Shown here one piece after another: positions 7,301 through 33,223 of a DNA stretch of 64,000 nucleotides. Numbering within the stretch: position 1 is the stretch's first letter; the number at the start of each line of letters is the position of its first letter. The notes under the pieces were generated by a model, which worked only from the letters and a program-made list of their open reading frames with translations, was not told the DNA's origin and searched no databases. This DNA comes from Cavenderia fasciculata (lineage: Eukaryota; Evosea; Eumycetozoa; Acytosteliales; Cavenderiaceae), in contig NW_004457639.1 of the NCBI RefSeq assembly GCF_000203815.1, positions 496,001 to 560,000 of the forward strand, in the 5' to 3' direction. The position numbers were made by a program, and so were the translations under genes.

Positions 7301-8730
7301 CAGATATTACCAAAACTTTTGCTTTTACCAATGCTCAAACATTTGATTCTTCTTTGTAAGAAAAAATAATAATATTTTAAATACCTTCTTTTTCTAATTT
7401 TTAATTTTTTAGGGATACAATTTATAATTTAGAAGATGAATTTATTAGATTACAATTCCCATTGGATAAATGGAGAATTACATATATTAATCAAGATTAT
7501 TCATTATGTCCAACCTATCCATCATTGTTTATCGTTCCATCGACAGTGAGCGAAGAGGATTTGAAAAAGATTGCAACTTTTAGAGAAAAGGGACGTGTTC
7601 CAGCCATCTGTTGGATCCATGGTAATCACAATAGCACCATTACAAGATGTAGTCAGCCACGTGTCGGTATATTCAAGAGTAAATGCAATGAGGATGAAGA
7701 GTATCTCAGTTTTATTACGCAAGCCAATTCAAACAGTTCGATTCTCTATGTCATGGATTCGCGTCCCATGGCAAACGCAAAGGCAAACACATTGATGGGC
7801 AAGGGTCACGAAGACACTAGTCTCTATCAAAATGTAGAACTTCAGTTCCTTGGTATTGGCAACATTCACGTTATGAGAGATGCCTATAAAAAGCTGACCA
7901 ATATAGTCCTAAACAATATGGATTCAGCCAACTGGCTCTCTATGATTGACAATACACAATGGCTAGAGCATATCTTCCAGTTGATAAACTCTGCCAACAT
8001 GGTGGTCGAGTTGGTCGACAAAAAGGGTTCGTCTGTCCTAACCCATTGCTCTGACGGTTGGGATCGTACCAGTCAACTCGTCGCACTCTCTCAACTACTG
8101 CTCGACCCCTACTATAGAACCTATCGTGGATTCCAAATCCTCATTGAAAAGGAATGGCTCAGCTTTGGACATCAATTTACCCATCGTTGTGGTCACGTCT
8201 CTCATGCTGGTGGTGATGAAGAAACATCTCCCATCTTTTTAATGTTTATAGATTCAGTATGGCAATTAATTAATTTATTCCCTACTACCTTTCAAGTAAG
8301 AAACAAATCAAAGGAGAAAAAGAATAAGAATAGTTTAATATTAATTGTTTTTTTTTTATCTAAATAGTTTAATGAAAGATTTTTAATTGAAGTATTAGAA
8401 AATGTTTATAATTGTAAATATGGTACGTTTTTATTTAATAATCAAAGAGAAAAGTTGGCTTATACCAAAAAGAATGGAGGTATGGTTTCACTTTGGTCGG
8501 CACTCAATTCTCAATCAGAGCTTTACATCAACTATTTTTATATTATGAATCCCAAGCCAATCTACCACAACTTCCTCATATCAGACATACAATTTTGGAG
8601 TAACTACTATCTCAGATGGCGCGAGAATTATAAACCCAAACTAGTCATTGATTCGGCCACCGTCAAGGAAGTAGAAAATAATCATTTCAAAGATTTATCA
8701 GTAGTTGATAAATCAAAAAAAATTAGATAA
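4344..8730 (+). CDS. GRAM-myotubularin phosphoinositide 3-phosphatase with long N-terminal ubiquitin-like/talin-F0-like region
   Basis: Five exons: 4344-6755, 6831-7061, 7135-7355, 7413-8295, 8368-8730; about 1369 residues. The C-terminal half is a classic active myotubularin. A PH-GRAM segment begins near residue 820 (GETIIHKRDGERI, GSLFLTNFRLIFIG), and the phosphatase domain carries the Cys-X5-Arg signature in HCSDGWDRTSQ, with the catalytic Cys codon at 8047-8049. Such enzymes remove the 3-phosphate of PI3P and PI(3,5)P2 on endosomes. The 800-residue N-terminus is unusual. Around residues 539-780, YNLTVLFPTHQTYRQFHF, LGYCLFFQKNGSGVWMEG, VVEFKPPP and FDLFLVKE follow the order of talin F0/F1 motifs (GLFLSDDDPKKGIWLEAGK, DTMEYRKK, DEYSLVRE). 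A weaker similar unit lies at about 305-480. The rest is N/Q-rich linker. The first intron is 75 bp, in frame and stop-free, so the gene also reads through it. The phosphatase call is firm; the talin-like reading is inference. Confidence 0.93.
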
Positions 8731-25597: not shown

Positions 25598-25760
25598 AAT
25601 AAATTGAACACTATTTTAAATGTTTTTGGGAATTGGCTTCGCTCCACTAGTATAAAAGGGACCAAAAACTTCAAAACTGCATATAACGTAATAAATTGAA
25701 CACTATCTTAAATGTTTTTGGGAATTGGCTTCGCTCCACTAGTATAAAAGGGCCATAAAA
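25598..25760 (+). repeat. Tandem repeat, about 92-bp period, near two copies
   Basis: Two near-identical units start at about 25598 and 25690 (AATAAATTGAACACTAT...). Each contains the motif AATTGGCTTCGCTCCACTAG followed by TATAAAAGGG. The second unit is cut short and passes into a third copy of the motif at 25774. It lies directly after the ankyrin gene and marks the start of the repeat island. Confidence 0.9.
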
Positions 25761-25773
25761 CAGCATATAACGT

Positions 25774-26317
25774 AATTGGCTTCGCGTGACTAGTATAAAG
25801 TATGGGGGAAACTCGCCACGCCACACCCCTCCCTCTCCCAAATATCACCACCAACAATTAGCCATAACTGCGAACCTGGCGAAGGAATGTCTGGCATGTG
25901 TTTGGGTCTTGATTATTTCGTCAGGAGGCTGTTGGCGATGGCTGTTGTGGTTTGGTTAACCAGTTTGGCGTGTTCGACTTAGATTGTACCTTTGAATCTT
26001 GCAATGACCATCTTATCTTCGTTTTCATCAGGTGATATTGTTGAGTGATAGATGGTGTTGAGGTGGTGGTGCCATGCTTTTATTTTTTTTTTTTTTTTTA
26101 ATAAAATCTTTGACCTCTTCATCACCTCTGAAGTCATATAGTTTATTTTTAAATTAATGATTTAATTATTATTGTTGTTTAATTCGGAGTAATTGTTAGA
26201 TAGTGGTATCCCCATCGAATACAGTGTGGCATGCGTAGCATATTGTATTGGTGTCAGCTGGGGTACGTTTCATTATTCTGGCAAAGAAACGAAAGAGGGT
26301 GTCTCTTGATGTCGTGC
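25774..26317. other. Degenerate repeat-island sequence, mixed composition
   Basis: After a motif copy at 25774-25800 comes a stretch with higher G/C content than nearby spacers (about 25800-26075). On the minus strand part of it still reads like diverged coding sequence with at least two breaks, but I could not assign a family. A T-run lies near 26080-26099. This resembles the remnant of a mobile element. No intact gene is present. Confidence 0.45.
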
Positions 26318-26390
26318 ATTTGACGCTTGCTTTTAGAAGCATGATCGCTACTACGAATTGGCTTCACATAATCGAATTGGCTTCGCGAGA
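26318..26390 (+). repeat. Outer inverted-repeat segment, left copy
   Basis: This segment (beginning CATTTGACGCTTGC, including AGCATGATCGCTACTACG and two AATTGGCTTC motifs at 26356 and 26375) recurs almost exactly in reverse complement at about 30788-30872. On the right it runs straight into the tRNA-bearing arm. On the left it is separated from the matching arm by about 680 bp of other sequence, which points to a later insertion. Confidence 0.85.
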
Positions 26391-26396
26391 CTTTTT

Positions 26397-27066
26397 TTTT
26401 TTTAAAGTAATTCTTTTCCTGTTCTCTCCTATCGGGAAGAGTAGTACTCAGAAGTTACAAAGTTTTATTAATTATACATTTTAATTGACCAAGCAAGAAA
26501 TAAAGATTATCTCGAGAAGAATTAAAGTTAATTTGTTCTGGGGGTTGTCCATGTCTATGATACATGTTATATGGACGTTGATCATGTATCTTATTGTATA
26601 GTGTCAAGCATGTTGGATTGTTTTGGGTTGTTACTTGTTCTAAAGATAAATTGGTTAAAGATATCGCTTTTTTTTTTTTTTTTTTTTTTTTTCTCAGCAC
26701 TATAGGCTGTAATATTGTGTTATATAATTATTCTATGTTATTATTATTTAGTAAATTATTATATTATTAATATTATTATTGATAGATGAAGAGAGAATAG
26801 AAGAAGATGAAGGTGTTGACGCAAATATGGCACCCATCTTCTTCTAATTTTAGTACCATACTTGCGGTGAAACCTTAAGCCTTGGGTGCGTCCAAGACCG
26901 ACTGCCGCTCTCAACTCTCGCGCCGATTTACTCCCCATTGTGGACACTCGTCTTTACGTGTTGCATATTGTATTTGAGATGTCAGATGGCTTTCTATCGC
27001 GACGGCCCAGTAGGTCCTCCACTACCTTCCCGTTACTTGTTGCAGTCTGGCTACCCAATCTCCTAC
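26397..27066 (-). mobile_element. Inserted LINE 3' fragment (minus orientation) splitting the left arm
   Basis: The 26600-26815 part matches 32215-32480 in reverse complement: the CATGTTGGATTGTTTTGG stretch, the T-run, TAATATTGTGTT, a TTATTATTATTTAGT segment, and GATGAAGAGAGAATAGAAG. In the other copy these lie just downstream of LINE coding sequence, so this is a 3' tail in minus orientation. Upstream of it on the minus strand (about 26947-26815) is a short open stretch reading SARELRAAVGLGRTQGLRF, which does not resemble the coding end of the other copy. The motif TTGGCTTCGCG occurs on both sides of the insert (26377 and 27071), consistent with a target duplication or with insertion between pre-existing motif copies. 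Confidence 0.65.
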
Positions 27067-27067
27067 T

Positions 27068-27365
27068 GAGTTGGCTTCGCGCGACGAGTATAAAAGGGAC
27101 AATGATCAAAAAAATAGTATCAAATATAATGCAAGGTTATGTAAGTGGTCAAAGCAGTGTGACTCAAGTTCTCATCCTCCGGGTTCGTGGGTTCGACTCC
27201 CACATCTTGCATACTTTTTTGCAGGAGGTGGCGGGAGCAAAAAAATCCTTTTTTCCTGTTATCCTGCCCGTTCCTACTCTATTTTGCAGAGTCCTGCTGT
27301 TTCTTGCTCTATTTTGATGTGTCCTGCTGATTTTTGCTTCTCCTGTCACCCCCTGCGTTTTTTAT
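27068..27365 (+). repeat. Inverted arm carrying tRNA-Leu, left copy
   Basis: The arm starts with the motif GTTGGCTTCGCGCGACGAG and TATAAAAGGG, then a 30-bp spacer, the tRNA-Leu gene, a T-run, GCAGGAGGTGGCGGGAG, and a long stretch of degenerate TCCTGC units. The same order recurs in reverse complement at about 30378-30803. Identity is near-perfect through the tRNA and weaker with indels outside it. Confidence 0.9.
27131..27211 (+). tRNA. tRNA-Leu (CAA), left copy
   Basis: The acceptor stem GCAAGGT pairs with ATCTTGC (one G-T wobble), followed by discriminator A. The T arm GTGGG-TTCGACT-CCCAC is perfect, giving a strong B box (GGTTCGACTCC). The anticodon loop is CTCAAGT, anticodon CAA, and a 12-nt variable region fits the class II (Leu/Ser) layout. 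The D arm and A box are recognisable but weaker (TATGTAAGTGG). The anticodon stem has one T-T mismatch. No intron is needed. A T6 run at about 27215 would end Pol III transcription. The identical second copy is at 30662-30742. Confidence 0.82.
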
Positions 27366-29298
27366 GACTCTACCTTTCTATCCTTAAAATGACCTCTATT
27401 TTACTTTACCTTAATCATTATTATTTTACACTTTGCCACTATCACTCATCGATGAGATCTTTTTGTTTGAGCAACACGATGCTACAACAAGTATTGATCT
27501 TTTAAAATCGTTCAGTCATGATACCCTCATAATAAAGTACTCTAGCTACAATAGAATCGGTCAGTCACCTAGCAATGTAGGCTCTAGAAATCATTCTTCT
27601 CTAGCAGCAACCAACAACATTTGGGCAGTTAGTAGAATTTATCATTCAAGAAATTGAAAAGGAAACTAGATCTATTCAAGAATCAGATAAAAAAACCAAT
27701 TATTTTAAAACTCGTAAGTCATTATCTTTTTGAATATATATATATATAAAATCTTTAAATTAATCCCTAACCTTTTATTTTATTAGTTTCAATTATATTA
27801 TCAATACCACAATTATCAACCAGAACAAAATATATTGAATATGCTGATAATCAATATGGATTGTTTTTATTTTATAATGAAATCAAAGTTTTAATTGTTA
27901 AAGATGATATCCAACAACAAGAAAATTCATTACTTGGGGTTCTAATTAAACAAATACAAGAATTATCAACAAAGAGTGGCATGGGTAAACAATTCAATTA
28001 TCACTGTGAAAAAGTTTACTCTTTTCTTGGTTATCATCCATTTTTAAAGAATGACAAAACTTCACACCAAGTGGATATTCAAATTCTAATGTATTGGTTT
28101 TATTTGTATACTTTCAAGACTCTCAAGCTATTCACAAGCAAGTCAAAGAATTTCTCAACCACAACAATACATTATTACAATTTGAACAAGAATCTGTTGT
28201 GGTATGGTTCTACTCAATATTGGAAATGGTAATCAAAAGATTAAATGGTGAAACACAAGCAACAAAAGTTTTATATATCACATACGATGGCCAGAGACAA
28301 GTAGATGGCTCAGAATCTATAATGACGATATTAATATACTGAAAAAACATTTGGAGAAAAATGATGCTCAATTCAAATGGATGCAAGATTGTTCAGATGT
28401 CTCTGTTTTAAATAAGCGTGGTATTTTGAATAAGGTTTTTGAAGAAAACCAGATTCGATTGATTGTAGAAAATCCACAATTGGAACGATTACAGATATCG
28501 TCCCCGATCATTATGGATTATGCAACCAAAAAGTTTTCTACTATTGGAAAAACCAAATCAACTGCAACATGGAATCAAGTTTTGGACGAATTTTTAAATA
28601 GTTTTGATCGTCTTATTCACATTCATATGAAACTGGTGTATATAAATGCTCATGCCAAACCACCCGGTGATGACAAAAACTATAAAAGACTTTTGGTTGA
28701 AGATATGGCACATTTGATTCAACAAGGTTGTGGAATTGTGGTAAAAAAAAAAAAAGAAAGAAAAATATTTATATTTATTAATTTTTATTTTTATTTTTTA
28801 AATAGAGAATTTATATTTAATGAATCAATTTGGTCGAAATGAAATGATTTCAAAAAAAGAATTTGAAGAATCTTTCCTGCAACTATACCTCATTATTCAA
28901 AAATGGTCTCTTGTCTGTTGGAGGATTTTGATGTGGAAAAAACCAAATCAACTCCTTTATTGTTTCCTACCATGGTTACGGATCAAAACCTTTCAACCAT
29001 TCTTGGGGGTTGTTTAAAAAGTCAACAATTTCGTTCCAATATGGCATTCAAGAAATCCTATCTTTTGAATTACCAATCTCTCAAACATTCTCTAGGTGGC
29101 AATTCAAAATCACTCAGAGCACTTGCTCAAGTTGGTTATCAAAACTCCCATTTTCAAAGTGACCAAGTATATGAAAAAATCTTGGTTGCTATTGATCAAT
29201 CAATCGCTAATCATGGTGAGACTATCAACGGTAATAATAATTCAATGGTTTTTGAAAAAGTTAAATCATCATATCGCAAGTATGTAAAAAACAAACAT

Positions 29299-29304
29299 TT
29301 ATTT

Positions 29305-29343
<39 letters not shown>
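29299..29343 (+). repeat. ATTT tetranucleotide repeat
   Basis: About eleven units of TTTA/ATTT in a row within the degraded gene region, probably in an intron. A similar run occurs near 41774-41803. Confidence 0.85.
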
Positions 29344-29344
<1 letters not shown>

Positions 29345-29710
29345 CCTTTTTTAATTATTAGTAATTATAGTATATATTGTACAAATGGCTGTGGATCAAG
29401 AAAATGTCAATATGGCAATTATTCCAATTCAAGCCACATTGCCTTTTGTAAAGACAATTGAAACGGGACTCACATGCAATAGAATCACTTGAATTAAATT
29501 GTGTGATCAAATGATCCAAGACTGATGGTGGTTATATACCAACAAAAAATGTAGATGAAACGCTTACGGCAAATCTCCAACACAAATCGGAAATATATCA
29601 AAATGAATTGCAACAACTCTTGACAGTCATCAATCCTTCTTCCAACAATACAGACTTTGTTCAAGTTTTTGGTTCTGATGCTCCTTTGAATCAACAAATG
29701 ATCTCTTTCA

Positions 29711-29748
<38 letters not shown>
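29711..29748 (+). repeat. AAT trinucleotide repeat
   Basis: About twelve AAT units inside the degraded gene; in a live gene they would encode Asn or Ile runs. Confidence 0.85.
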
Positions 29749-30613
29749 GCATCTCATCCTTTGAAGTCATTGAAACTTTTCCAACAACCAATGGTAATAC
29801 AGATACAACCCATTCAACCACTCCTCATCCTCATCCTCATCCTCATCCTCATCCTCCTCCTCTTCATCCTCATCCTCCTCCCCATCCTCTTCCTCTTCCT
29901 CTTTTAATTGAATCAACTCTTTTACCAATTCAAGATAATACTTATTATCAAATCATTCAAGTTCACCAATTTCAAGATAGAAAACAGGCTTAGGGATTTT
30001 AAAGGATTATTTGACCCTCTTTCTATTCCATTTGAAATACTGCTAGTATATGAACCACACGATAATACATTCACAAAGACCAACTTGCTTTTGCGATTCA
30101 ACAGCGATCTTGATCGAACCAACTTTGTGAAAAAGTGCTCAAACCCATTTGTATACCCAGGAGAAGGGAACAAACGATATGGCTTGATGTGTTTGGATCC
30201 CAAACAATCAATTTACTTTATCACAAAACCATCTATTCTTTTTCAAATAATATTATTCATCAAATTCTTAAAAGATAAAAAATAAATAAATAAATAAATA
30301 AATAATTGTAAAAAGCCAAAAAAATTAAAAGAATGTCACAATAGCAGTGTAAAATAATAGTGGCAAGTAAAATAGAGGACATGAGAGGGCAGGAGACATA
30401 TAAAAAACAGCAGGAGACGCCAGGAGAAGCAAAAATCAGCAGGACACAACAAAATAGAGCAAGAAACAGCAGGACTCTGCAAAATACAGCAGGATACGTT
30501 TTATTTTGTGGATGAGGACTAGGGCTTGGAGAGGAAAATAGAGTAGGAACGGATAGGAACGGGCAGGATAACAGGAAAAAAAGGTTTTTTTGCTCCTCCC
30601 GCCACCTCCTGCA

Positions 30614-30662
30614 AAAAAAGTATGCAAAAAAAGTATGCAAAAAAAGTATGCAAAAAAAGTAT
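30614..30662 (+). repeat. Tandem 13-bp repeat (TATGCAAAAAAAG), four units
   Basis: Four units of TATGCAAAAAAAG lie immediately 3' of the right tRNA-Leu (which is on the minus strand). Each unit supplies a T7 run on the tRNA's coding strand. The left arm has only one such unit, so this is a recent local expansion. Confidence 0.9.
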
Positions 30663-30742
30663 GCAAGATGTGGGAGTCGAACCCACGAACCCGGAGGATG
30701 AGAACTTGAGTCACACTGCTTTGACCACTTACATAACCTTGC
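30662..30742 (-). tRNA. tRNA-Leu (CAA), right copy
   Basis: The 81-nt sequence is identical in reverse complement to the copy at 27131-27211, including the T-T mismatch in the anticodon stem. Discriminator A is at 30662 and the 5' end at 30742. T-runs downstream (30614-30660 read on the minus strand) give several possible Pol III terminators. Confidence 0.82.
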
Positions 30743-30787
30743 ATTATGTTTGATACTATTTTTATGATCATTGTCCCTTTTATACTC

Positions 30788-30940
30788 GTCGCGCGAAGCC
30801 AATTAGATTATGTGAAGCCAATTCGTAGTAGCGATCATGCTTCTAAAAGCAAGCGTCAAATGATTACATGCTGTTTTTCGGTTCTTTGGCCCATTTTTAC
30901 TCGTTGCGCGAAGCCAATTCGATTATGTGAAGCCAATTCG
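30788..30940 (-). repeat. Outer inverted-repeat segment, right copy, with four motif copies
   Basis: GAAGCCAATT (reverse complement of AATTGGCTTC) occurs at 30795, 30814, 30910 and 30929. The first pair with the following sequence to about 30872 mirrors 26318-26390. The second pair repeats the same arrangement and then abuts the LINE fragment. Confidence 0.88.
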
Positions 30941-30943
30941 TCC

Positions 30944-32500
30944 CAGCTGTCTATGTCTGCCAAAAACATCCAAGAATTTAAACTAATGGACGAATGGATT
31001 CAGCTATTCTGTAAAGCTACATCATCCAAAGTCAACACTGACAAATGTGTGATCATGTCACCTGGCAGTCCAACCAATTTACCGTACCCACTGATGGACA
31101 AGGAAAGCAAAGAACGATACCCGGCTATTACTTTAACCAGTTTGGTTTGGTACCACACCTTCCAGAGCGTATTGACAAGAACGATTTGATTAGATGGAAA
31201 CCTAAACACAACAATAACTATAGAGGTAAATTATCTTTGCTCAAAACATATGGTTTGTCACAATTAAATTATTTTATGTACCTTGAATCACTTAGTCACG
31301 AGGTAATCACCACGAGGTAAAGAACAATCGAGTTGCAAAGGTTTCATTTGCCCAATCATGGATGGACCAACTCATCCAAGACAAACCAAACGACTTTGTC
31401 CGTCTCTGCCGCAGCCAGTGGGAGAAGCTCACCCAACCCTACGACGTCAGCAGAGAGGCTGTTCCCAAGCCAGCAATGGAACCAGACAAAAGAGGAAGAG
31501 TACCTCTCAAGCAAGTGTACCTCCAAAGGCTGACCATAGCCAACGAAAAGTGGAATGTGTACGACCCGACCCCAGGCCAAAAGATCTTAGCAACCGATGA
31601 CAGAGTGTATCTAATGAACGCACTAGCTGCTCTATCTACCATCGTGTTACCAAAGGGTCGAGATCTGGTTTGGAAATACGTAACCAAATGTCTCCATCTG
31701 TGTGTCGTGTGGTAAAGATGAATCCTCCAAGCACTTGTTCTTCCAATGCAAGGAGACCACGCTGCCAGTGAAGATACTGAAAGAGGTTACTGCTGCCAAC
31801 AACATTACACCACCAGTTTGGGACATCACCCTCCTCAACCTCAACAAACTCCAATGACTACAAACATGGTCGCTTCAATATTCGAACGAATATGGTTCCG
31901 ACGTAATGATCTACGTCACCAAAGAGATGAACCATTCACTGAACAATACCTGCGAGCTAGACTGCTAAATGATATGCGACATATTATCAAAGTAAACTGG
32001 GACAAGACGTTTGAATTATGTAATCGATGGCACTTGGCTCTAATGAACCAAACCGACGAGTCAGCAATACATACGATTACAGAACGAATTCAAACTATCA
32101 TCCTTCGATTCTCCTCCGACTACAACCATCCTACTGTCTACAAGATCGCACTACCTAGTCATTTGGAGAGGTACATGACTCTGCGTACACTACATCTATA
32201 ATCGATCACCTCAACCTCTTTCTTCTCATCCTCCTCAACACCTTCATCTTCTTCTATTCTCTCTTCATCTATCAATAATAATATTAATAATATAATAATC
32301 AACTAAATAATAATAACAAAATTGAATAATCAACACAATATTACTGCCTTTGGCAAAGAGAAAAAAAAAAAAAAAATAGCAATATCATTTAATTTACTTT
32401 TAGAACAAGCAACAATCCAAAACAATCCAACATGCTTGATCACAAACAAAAAAGATACATGATCAAAAATAAAAATATCAAATCTTACTCCAGAACAAAA
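30944..32500 (+). mobile_element. 5'-truncated LINE (TRE/L1-like non-LTR retrotransposon), broken ORF2 3' part and tail
   Basis: The plus strand encodes pieces of the C-terminal half of a non-LTR reverse transcriptase: WIQLFCKATSSKVNTDKC (end of the RT domain), GYYFNQFGLVPHL, then a zinc-finger-like CGKDESSKHLFFQC region and a C-terminal region (FERIWFRRNDLRHQRDEP) that stays open to the stop codon near 32201. The frame is broken about three times. After the ORF come pyrimidine-rich sequence, TAATAATA units and an A-run (about 32360-32376) that also appear in the minus-oriented copy at 26600-26815. Dictyostelid TRE elements insert next to tRNA genes; here a tRNA-Gly lies about 400 bp downstream. 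No 5' end, ORF1 or endonuclease is present. Confidence 0.8.
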
Positions 32501-32894
32501 CCACTTTTGCATTTTTTAATTGTTATTATAAGTACGACTGCGGCTTCAGTTTTTATATGACAGAATTTAAAAAGAAATCCCACACAACCTCTCCTCTCTC
32601 ATTGTAGTCAAAATTGATTGGTTGGTTGATTGATTGATCGATTGATTGGGGAATTGATTAATTGATTGGTTGATCTGTTGTGTAACGGATCGCTGGTTGG
32701 TTGGGCCCGTACTCGCGTGGTGCTAATCTCACGGGTGCCTCTCGAGCAGTCAACAAGGAGATTACTTAGTTCGGTGCATGTGGTGTGGTGTAATTGCTCG
32801 TTTCTATTGCGGTTGGTCGCCATCAGGTGGTTGATAAAAACGAGGCCAAAATTTTTGAGGTCAAAAAACAAAGACACCAAAAATCCTTCAATAA
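32501..32894. other. Spacer between LINE tail and tRNA-Gly
   Basis: TTGATTGG-type repeats lie at about 32611-32677. Next is a comparatively G/C-rich stretch (about 32685-32830) with short open frames but no recognisable protein or RNA. It may be older repeat debris. Confidence 0.4.
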
Positions 32895-32965
32895 GCACCA
32901 ATGGTTCAATGGTAGAATGGATCCCTGCCACGGATTCGATCCGAGTTCGATTCTCGGTTGGTGCA
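32895..32965 (+). tRNA. tRNA-Gly (GCC)
   Basis: The acceptor stem GCACCAA pairs perfectly with TTGGTGC, with discriminator A at 32965. The D arm carries GGTTCAATGGTAGAA (A box). The anticodon loop in CCCTGCCACGG reads GCC. The T arm is CCGAG-TTCGATT-CTCGG (B box GTTCGATTC). Length and sequence match eukaryotic tRNA-Gly(GCC) very closely. A T5 terminator follows at about 32969-32973. Confidence 0.96.
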
Positions 32966-33223
32966 CTCTTTTTGCCCTATTTAACTTTTTTTTTTTGCGG
33001 CAGGGCTCAAATCACGTTCTCCTCTTCATTCCCTATCGATTGAGCTAGGTTTCATTCATTTCCATCAAATCCTCATACAAGAAAACAACCAATCAAGTAA
33101 AATGGATAGCAAAATAACATTAAAAAAAAGTAGAAAAACTTTGTTAGTCGATCATCGTTTTTCAACAATTAATCTTAAAGATTTAAACTTTTTCTTATTT
33201 GTAATACAAATATTTCTATAGCA

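What the first reader, a model, noticed from the sequence alone, without database searches (positions are those of the whole stretch)
26318..30940. Composite inverted-repeat structure with identical tRNA-Leu genes in both arms around a degraded gene
The arms (27068-27365 and 30378-30803) are inverted copies, each with a complete tRNA-Leu(CAA). Outer segments (26318-26390 and 30788-30872) extend the inversion. The interior is 3 kb of broken intron-containing coding sequence. This could be a large DNA transposon whose termini carry a tRNA gene, or a palindromic duplication made at a tRNA locus. The identical tRNAs argue for recent origin or gene conversion.
Basis: partly seen in the sequence, partly recalled or inferred. 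Interest (0 to 1): 0.8.

Follow-up and report, generated by a model that had tools for sequence, protein, structure and literature searches.

The report
Inverted tRNA-Leu pair with targeted retroelements
Two identical leucine tRNA genes lie tail to tail around a dead gene, with mobile elements inserted in front of them; the dead gene belongs to an unusual family that resembles bacterial DNA recombinases and that, in this amoeba-like genome, was found beside tRNA genes at several places.

Summary
Two identical tRNA-Leu(CAA) genes (27130-27212 +, 30661-30743 -) lie in inverted arms, 97-99% alike near the tRNAs and less alike inward. The left arm alone carries a 679-bp insertion (26392-27070): a 5'-truncated, poly(A)-tailed SINE-like element with a 15-bp target duplication, 59 bp upstream of the tRNA. 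Of 7 dispersed copies examined, 5 lie 55-61 bp upstream of other tRNAs with perfect duplications. Outside the right arm lies a fragment of a TRE5-like LINE. The arms are not transposon ends: the same tRNA-Leu unit occurs singly at three other places with an identical tRNA, and other inverted tRNA pairs enclose unrelated sequence. The interior is a decayed member of a gene family (7 loci found) whose better copies resemble serine recombinases. Four of the 7 loci lie within 700 bp of a tRNA 3' end, three of them between inverted tRNA pairs. Best reading: an inverted tRNA duplication, loaded by tRNA-targeted retroelements, around a relic of that family. Whether the family is itself mobile is open.

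The parts
26083..26330 (-). remnants of another, presumably older repeat (two modules, T-run 26083-26099) upstream of the left tRNA
   Evidence: blocks matching about 26083-26207 and 26206-26330 recur in tRNA-bearing loci L036 and L056 (both blocks), L037 (first block), 94-98%; in L039 78% and 96%
26317..26391 (.). outer arm segment, left (inverted copy of 30788-30862)
   Evidence: I4, 97%; 73/75
26392..27070 (-). 5'-truncated SINE-like retroelement: LINE-shared tail 26392-26819 ending in poly(A) on the - strand, body 26820-27070
   Evidence: 59 rows for the query 26318-27400, a lower bound; longer copies with A/B-box-like head, TSDs and tRNA neighbours
26377..26391 (.). target-site duplication copy TTGGCTTCGCGAGAC; other copy 27071-27085 TTGGCTTCGCGCGAC
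   Evidence: one copy only in the uninterrupted right arm
27071..27129 (+). tRNA-Leu 5' flank (TATAAAAGGG), shared in part with dispersed tRNA-Leu units
27130..27212 (+). tRNA-Leu(CAA), left
27213..27436 (+). tRNA 3' flank with CCTGCTG-type repeat, left arm
27634..30309 (+). decayed member of the serine-recombinase-like gene family; regions holding the motifs in C1 are missing
30346..30660 (-). tRNA 3' flank with repeats, right arm
30661..30743 (-). tRNA-Leu(CAA), right
30744..30862 (-). 5' flank of right tRNA, uninterrupted (counterpart of the left insertion site)
30863..30948 (-). second partial copy of the tRNA 5'-flank sequence, no tRNA
   Evidence: D8, 85%
30949..32466 (+). TRE5-like LINE fragment (3' part of ORF2 and part of the 3' UTR), 205 bp upstream of the right tRNA, 5' end facing it
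   Evidence: (66 rows, a lower bound); RT in relative L045, PF00078 E 4.5e-33

Best explanation
This is an inverted (tail-to-tail) duplication of a tRNA-Leu(CAA) unit around a dead gene copy, loaded by retroelements that target positions just upstream of tRNA genes. SHOWN: the arms are two copies of a tRNA-Leu unit that also occurs singly elsewhere; the left arm is interrupted by a SINE-like element 59 bp upstream of the tRNA, flanked by a 15-bp duplication (one mismatch), while the right arm keeps the uninterrupted site; a LINE fragment lies 205 bp upstream of the right tRNA with its 5' end facing it. INFERRED: the SINE-like insertion came after the tRNA duplication; both element types are inserted by the LINE's machinery through target-primed reverse transcription guided by the Pol III complex (described for TRE5-A in passages of PMC5911963). 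The interior is a relic of a gene family with serine-recombinase-like domains; it was brought beside, or caught in, the tRNA duplication by DNA-level copying, since introns seem to be kept. The tRNAs stay identical through selection or genome-wide conversion, not because the palindrome is new.
For: Arms and tRNAs. tRNA-Leu unit at C11, C18:438k, C12:1152k with one tRNA-Leu each in 9.9 kb. SINE-like element: 7 of 7 dispersed copies examined have a tRNA on the head side; 5 of 7 sit 55-61 bp upstream with perfect 12-16 bp TSDs, one 143 bp with one mismatch, one gave no TSD. At C11 a LINE copy begins at the equivalent of window 27074, within 3 bp of the left-arm insertion point. LINE: 7 of 9 copies examined (L041-L049) have a tRNA in the fetched locus, the other two just outside (with ranges); in all 9 the LINE's 5' end faces the tRNA. 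RT PF00078 E 4.5e-33. Inverted pairs without the interior family: L038, L062. Published range for D. fasciculatum TRE5-like elements: 31-98 bp upstream (PMC5006619, table seen in a passage).
Against: The gene family lies near tRNAs more often than expected (4 of 7 loci; P about 2e-6 to 6e-6 for 3 of 6, counting C1 and C12 once, post hoc, assuming 200-300 tRNAs), which a passive bystander does not explain. Single tRNA-Leu units L036 and L037 continue their 3' repeat beyond the point where both window arms stop, as if the interior had been placed there. The window LINE is 205 bp away, outside the usual distance, and its 3' end does not reach the poly(A) end. The history of 30863-30948 is not resolved. 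The 7 SINE-like and 9 LINE copies examined are the best-scoring ones, which leans towards young copies.
Confidence: 0.75

Rival explanations
1. The interior gene family is (or was) a mobile element that settles just downstream of tRNA genes, works through its serine-recombinase-like domains, and promotes or exploits inverted tRNA duplication.
For: 4 of 7 family loci within 700 bp of a tRNA 3' end, at Leu, Trp-like and Arg tRNAs, 3 of them between inverted pairs. Window and C1 copies share both ends although their tRNA neighbours differ. A family profile hits Sin recombinase in PDB, best E 1.7e-5; the 17 top rows of the structural comparison are serine recombinases.
Against: No terminal repeats or target duplications of its own were seen; the most open copies (C3, C4) have no tRNA in the fetched stretch, nor has C20; 5 of 8 candidate convergent tRNA pairs hold no detected family member (two interiors were read only in part and one not at all); C1 and C12 share ancestry (96% over 819 bp), so they are not independent; the window copy has lost its motifs.
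Confidence: 0.18
2. A DNA transposon whose terminal inverted repeats carry the tRNA-Leu gene.
For: Inverted arms flank a coding interior; related interiors recur between inverted tRNA arms.
Against: Arms differ between relatives (Leu, Trp-like, Arg); the arm unit exists alone; other inverted tRNA pairs enclose unrelated sequence (L038, L062).
Confidence: 0.04
3. Assembly artefact: a misjoined or collapsed repeat.
For: The arms are repeated in the genome; no reads are available here.
Against: The arms differ by substitutions and indels, by a retroelement insertion and by different outer flanks.
Confidence: 0.03

Closest known systems
TRE5-type tRNA-gene-targeted non-LTR retrotransposons of dictyostelids (TRE5-A; Df_TRE5-A/B)
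   Same: RT-encoding LINE upstream of tRNA genes of several kinds, 5' end toward the tRNA; the C11 copy lies 56 bp upstream
   Different: Only fragments in the window, 205 bp from the tRNA; not compared by sequence with the published elements, which are not held here
tRNA-derived SINEs with LINE-shared tails
   Same: A/B-box-like head, tail shared with the LINE, poly(A), target duplications
   Different: About 0.9 kb long and itself placed 55-61 bp upstream of tRNA genes in 5 of 7 copies; 'SINE', 'short interspersed' and 'non-autonomous' have no occurrence in the main text of PMC5006619; one further search (listing only, 15 of 59 papers shown) was made, so novelty is not established
Dada DNA transposons (tRNA/snRNA-targeted)
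   Same: DNA element associated with tRNA genes
   Different: Dada inserts inside the RNA gene with 6-7 bp duplications and has a DDE transposase (PMC3706591, passages); here both tRNAs are whole and the interior family resembles serine recombinases
Serine recombinases (Sin, gamma-delta resolvase, IS607 TnpA)
   Same: Catalytic-domain profile match and predicted fold
   Different: In a eukaryote, apparently with introns, a second degenerate domain suggested by eye; no DNA-binding domain was identified. Serine recombinases in eukaryotes are not unheard of: PMC2715888 on genes transferred into yeasts uses the term 14 times (listing only)

Membership tests
TRE5-like LINE | Encodes a reverse transcriptase of non-LTR type | tested here: met
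   Relative L045: PF00078 E 4.5e-33; the window fragment holds only the 3' part of ORF2, without a Pfam match of its own
TRE5-like LINE | Sits upstream of tRNA genes, opposite orientation, about 30-100 bp away when next to the tRNA | tested here: met
   Met at C11 (56 bp); 9 of 9 examined copies face a tRNA with the 5' end, exact distances not measured for the others. The window copy at 205 bp is outside the range
TRE5-like LINE | Sequence relationship to published TRE5 elements | not testable with these tools
   Published element sequences not held
tRNA-derived SINE | Pol III A and B boxes in the head | tested here: met
   GGTTCGAATCC in 6 of 7 dispersed copies (L005 lacks it, being truncated); A box by eye only; transcription not tested; the window copy is truncated and lacks both
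tRNA-derived SINE | Poly(A) tail, tail shared with partner LINE, target duplications | tested here: met
   (TSD found in 6 of 7 dispersed copies, one of the six with a mismatch)
Serine recombinase superfamily | Resolvase catalytic-domain homology | tested here: met
Serine recombinase superfamily | Nucleophilic Ser and catalytic Arg residues | tested here: inconclusive
   R-x-S and RLxR-like motifs by eye in C1, C3 and C20 (ERISRR in C3); N-terminal motif aligned in A3 but outside the profile match
Serine recombinase superfamily | Strand-exchange activity | not testable with these tools
   no biochemistry
DNA transposon with tRNA-bearing terminal repeats | Same arms around the same interior at more than one locus | tested here: not met
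DNA transposon with tRNA-bearing terminal repeats | Target duplication outside the outer arms | tested here: inconclusive
   none noticed on reading; no dedicated test, no empty site known
Dada | Insertion inside the tRNA gene | tested here: not met
   both tRNAs complete

The most novel reading that the evidence does not exclude
A eukaryotic DNA element family encoding a protein with two serine-recombinase domains homes to the 3' side of tRNA genes and leaves relics between inverted tRNA pairs, a eukaryotic counterpart of bacterial islands that use tRNA genes as attachment sites.
Probability: 0.15. Interest if true: 0.85.

Novelty: new variant of a known kind. Interest (0 to 1): 0.48.

Why it matters
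tRNA genes are landing sites of mobile elements in gene-dense amoeba genomes. Here one inverted repeat holds a filled target in one arm and the unfilled counterpart in the other, so insertion point and duplication can be read directly; it points to a SINE-like element that shares the LINE's address; and it exposes a serine-recombinase-like gene family associated with tRNA loci, of which I saw no report in the listings of four searches of the held library (listings of 99 and 109 show 10 of 21 and 8 of 14 papers).

Tried and rejected
DNA transposon with tRNA in its TIRs: rejected (see rivals). Identical tRNAs as sign of recent origin: rejected. Interior as a known domain: Pfam gave nothing convincing on 5 window pieces of it. 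First structure job (C4, 390 aa) too poor to use (pLDDT 47). Foldseek on the second model gave 506 matches at E <= 10 and none at E <= 0.001; the best by E-value is unrelated (TrmBL2, 0.059), resolvases start at rank 3 with probability 0.98 over about 46-53 columns; so the fold claim rests. PHROGs: DNA invertase phrog_125 only at E 0.032 and 0.053, not the best hit for C4. RF00005 survey listed only 63 of 1670 candidates, so a B-box map was used: 165 places, against 29 for the control patterns, a few of them double-listed palindromes; it misses tRNAs with other B boxes. Of the 10 convergent rows I merged two C5:2010019 rows and dropped C5:767188-774094 (both places lie in the heads of SINE-like copies L006 and L007), leaving 8 candidates; C4, C16 and C18:1155980 were not confirmed as tRNAs; the L062 pair is tRNA-like but cut by the locus ends, and neither ARAGORN nor Rfam called it. 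One genome search remained unused.
Full report
Setting. The window is G000:C18:496001-560000 of a 31.0-Mb, 21-contig genome. AT-rich sequence, Q/N tracts and LINEs upstream of tRNA genes suggest a dictyostelid, perhaps Cavenderia (Dictyostelium) fasciculata; this is inference, no tool names the organism.

Observation. The inverted arms and both tRNA-Leu(CAA) genes are as described. The arms match 148 of 150 bases around the tRNAs, 73 of 75 in the outer segment, and decay inward with indels. In the right arm inner and outer segments are continuous; in the left arm 679 bp separate them.

The 679-bp segment. The query 26318-27400 gave 59 rows in the genome, a lower bound. In dispersed copies the same body is preceded by up to about 200 bp with A- and B-box-like sequence (GGTTCGAATCC in 6 of 7; A box by eye), it ends in poly(A), and its last 428 bp are shared with the LINE. 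Of 7 copies examined, the best-scoring ones, 7 have a tRNA (Met, Lys, Asp, Arg, Glu, Glu, Gly) on the head side; measured by target duplication, 5 lie 55-61 bp upstream with perfect 12-16 bp duplications, one 143 bp with one mismatch, and one gave none. The window copy is 59 bp from its tRNA with a 15-bp duplication, one mismatch.

The LINE. 30949-32466 matches the 3' part of a LINE (66 rows, a lower bound) whose relative L045 has an open frame of about 700 aa with RT (PF00078). At C11 a copy begins at the equivalent of window 27074. The review PMC5911963 (passages) and PMC5006619 (passages and section 9) describe TRE5-like elements upstream of tRNA genes, 31-98 bp in D. fasciculatum. This part is a known kind. 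The window LINE itself is 205 bp away and does not reach its poly(A) end; other pieces (26083-26330, 30863-30948) suggest repeated use of the site.

The arms are a dispersed unit. The same tRNA and 5' flank occur at C11, C18:438k and C12:1152k, one tRNA-Leu in each 9.9-kb stretch. All five tRNAs are identical; arm against arm is 98.7%, arms against the single copies 97.3-99.2%. The 3' repeat flank is shared with the C18 and C12 units, which continue it further than either window arm.

The interior. Relatives were found at C1, C12, C20, C4 and C14 and C3: seven loci with the window. C12 lies between inverted Trp-like tRNAs (Trp by eye, Rfam calls tRNA); C14 between inverted tRNA-Arg(TCT); C1 lies 144 bp from one Trp-like tRNA. 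No tRNA was called in the fetched stretches around C20, C4 and C3 (ARAGORN, bacterial code); the nearest seen are about 6 kb away for C20 (tRNA-Met, L058) and about 6 kb for C4 (tRNA-Asn, L060). If 200-300 tRNAs are assumed (one search suggests about 200 with one B-box pattern), 3 of 6 loci within 700 bp of a tRNA 3' end, C1 and C12 counted once, has P about 2e-6 to 6e-6; the test and the 700 bp were chosen after seeing the data.

Inverted tRNA pairs in general. The B-box map gives 8 candidate convergent pairs under 8 kb after the drops told in Tried and rejected; 3 hold a family member. L038 (tRNA-Leu(TAA), 85% arms) encloses a tRNA-Ser and LINE sequence; L062 encloses a gene with a 486-aa frame; 901-bp samples of the C16 and C18:1155980 interiors show no family match; the C4 candidate was not read. 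So inverted tRNA pairs do not need this family, but the family is over-represented at tRNAs among the loci found.

Verdict. Confirmed structure; ordinary in its LINE part; a new variant in the SINE-like element and in the recombinase-like interior family, with the limits of the paper searches stated. The mobile reading of that family stays possible but unproven.

Noticed in passing
L002-L008 (C13, C17, C21, C8, C5, C5, C21): About 0.9-kb SINE-like element with A/B-box-like head and LINE-shared tail, placed 55-61 bp upstream of tRNA genes in 5 of 7 copies.
   Followed up: partly
L033:3460-3773, L056:2919-2983 and 7741-8026, window 27256-27444: The three tRNA kinds looked at each have their own minisatellite in the 3' flank (Trp-like: GTCGTGGTGCCT; Arg: about 102-bp units; Leu: CCTGCTG).
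   Followed up: no
L057:3581-7047 (C4) and L061:703-3210 (C3): Open-frame, serine-recombinase-like genes with no tRNA in the fetched stretch; possible host genes.
   Followed up: partly
L033:3912-5687 (C12): Interior gene copy is itself rearranged: one part on the - strand, a 3' part on the + strand.
   Followed up: partly
L036 (C18:434000-443900) and window 27130-33130: Both hold tRNA-Leu(CAA) and, downstream, tRNA-Gly(GCC) with similar flanks (window 32842-33130 matches L036 8112-8481 in two blocks); perhaps a larger duplicated block, about 85 kb apart.
   Followed up: no
window 25598-25800: Tandem copies (92-bp spacing, 94%) of the GAATTGGCTTCGC...TATAAAAGGG flank sequence without a tRNA.
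   Followed up: no
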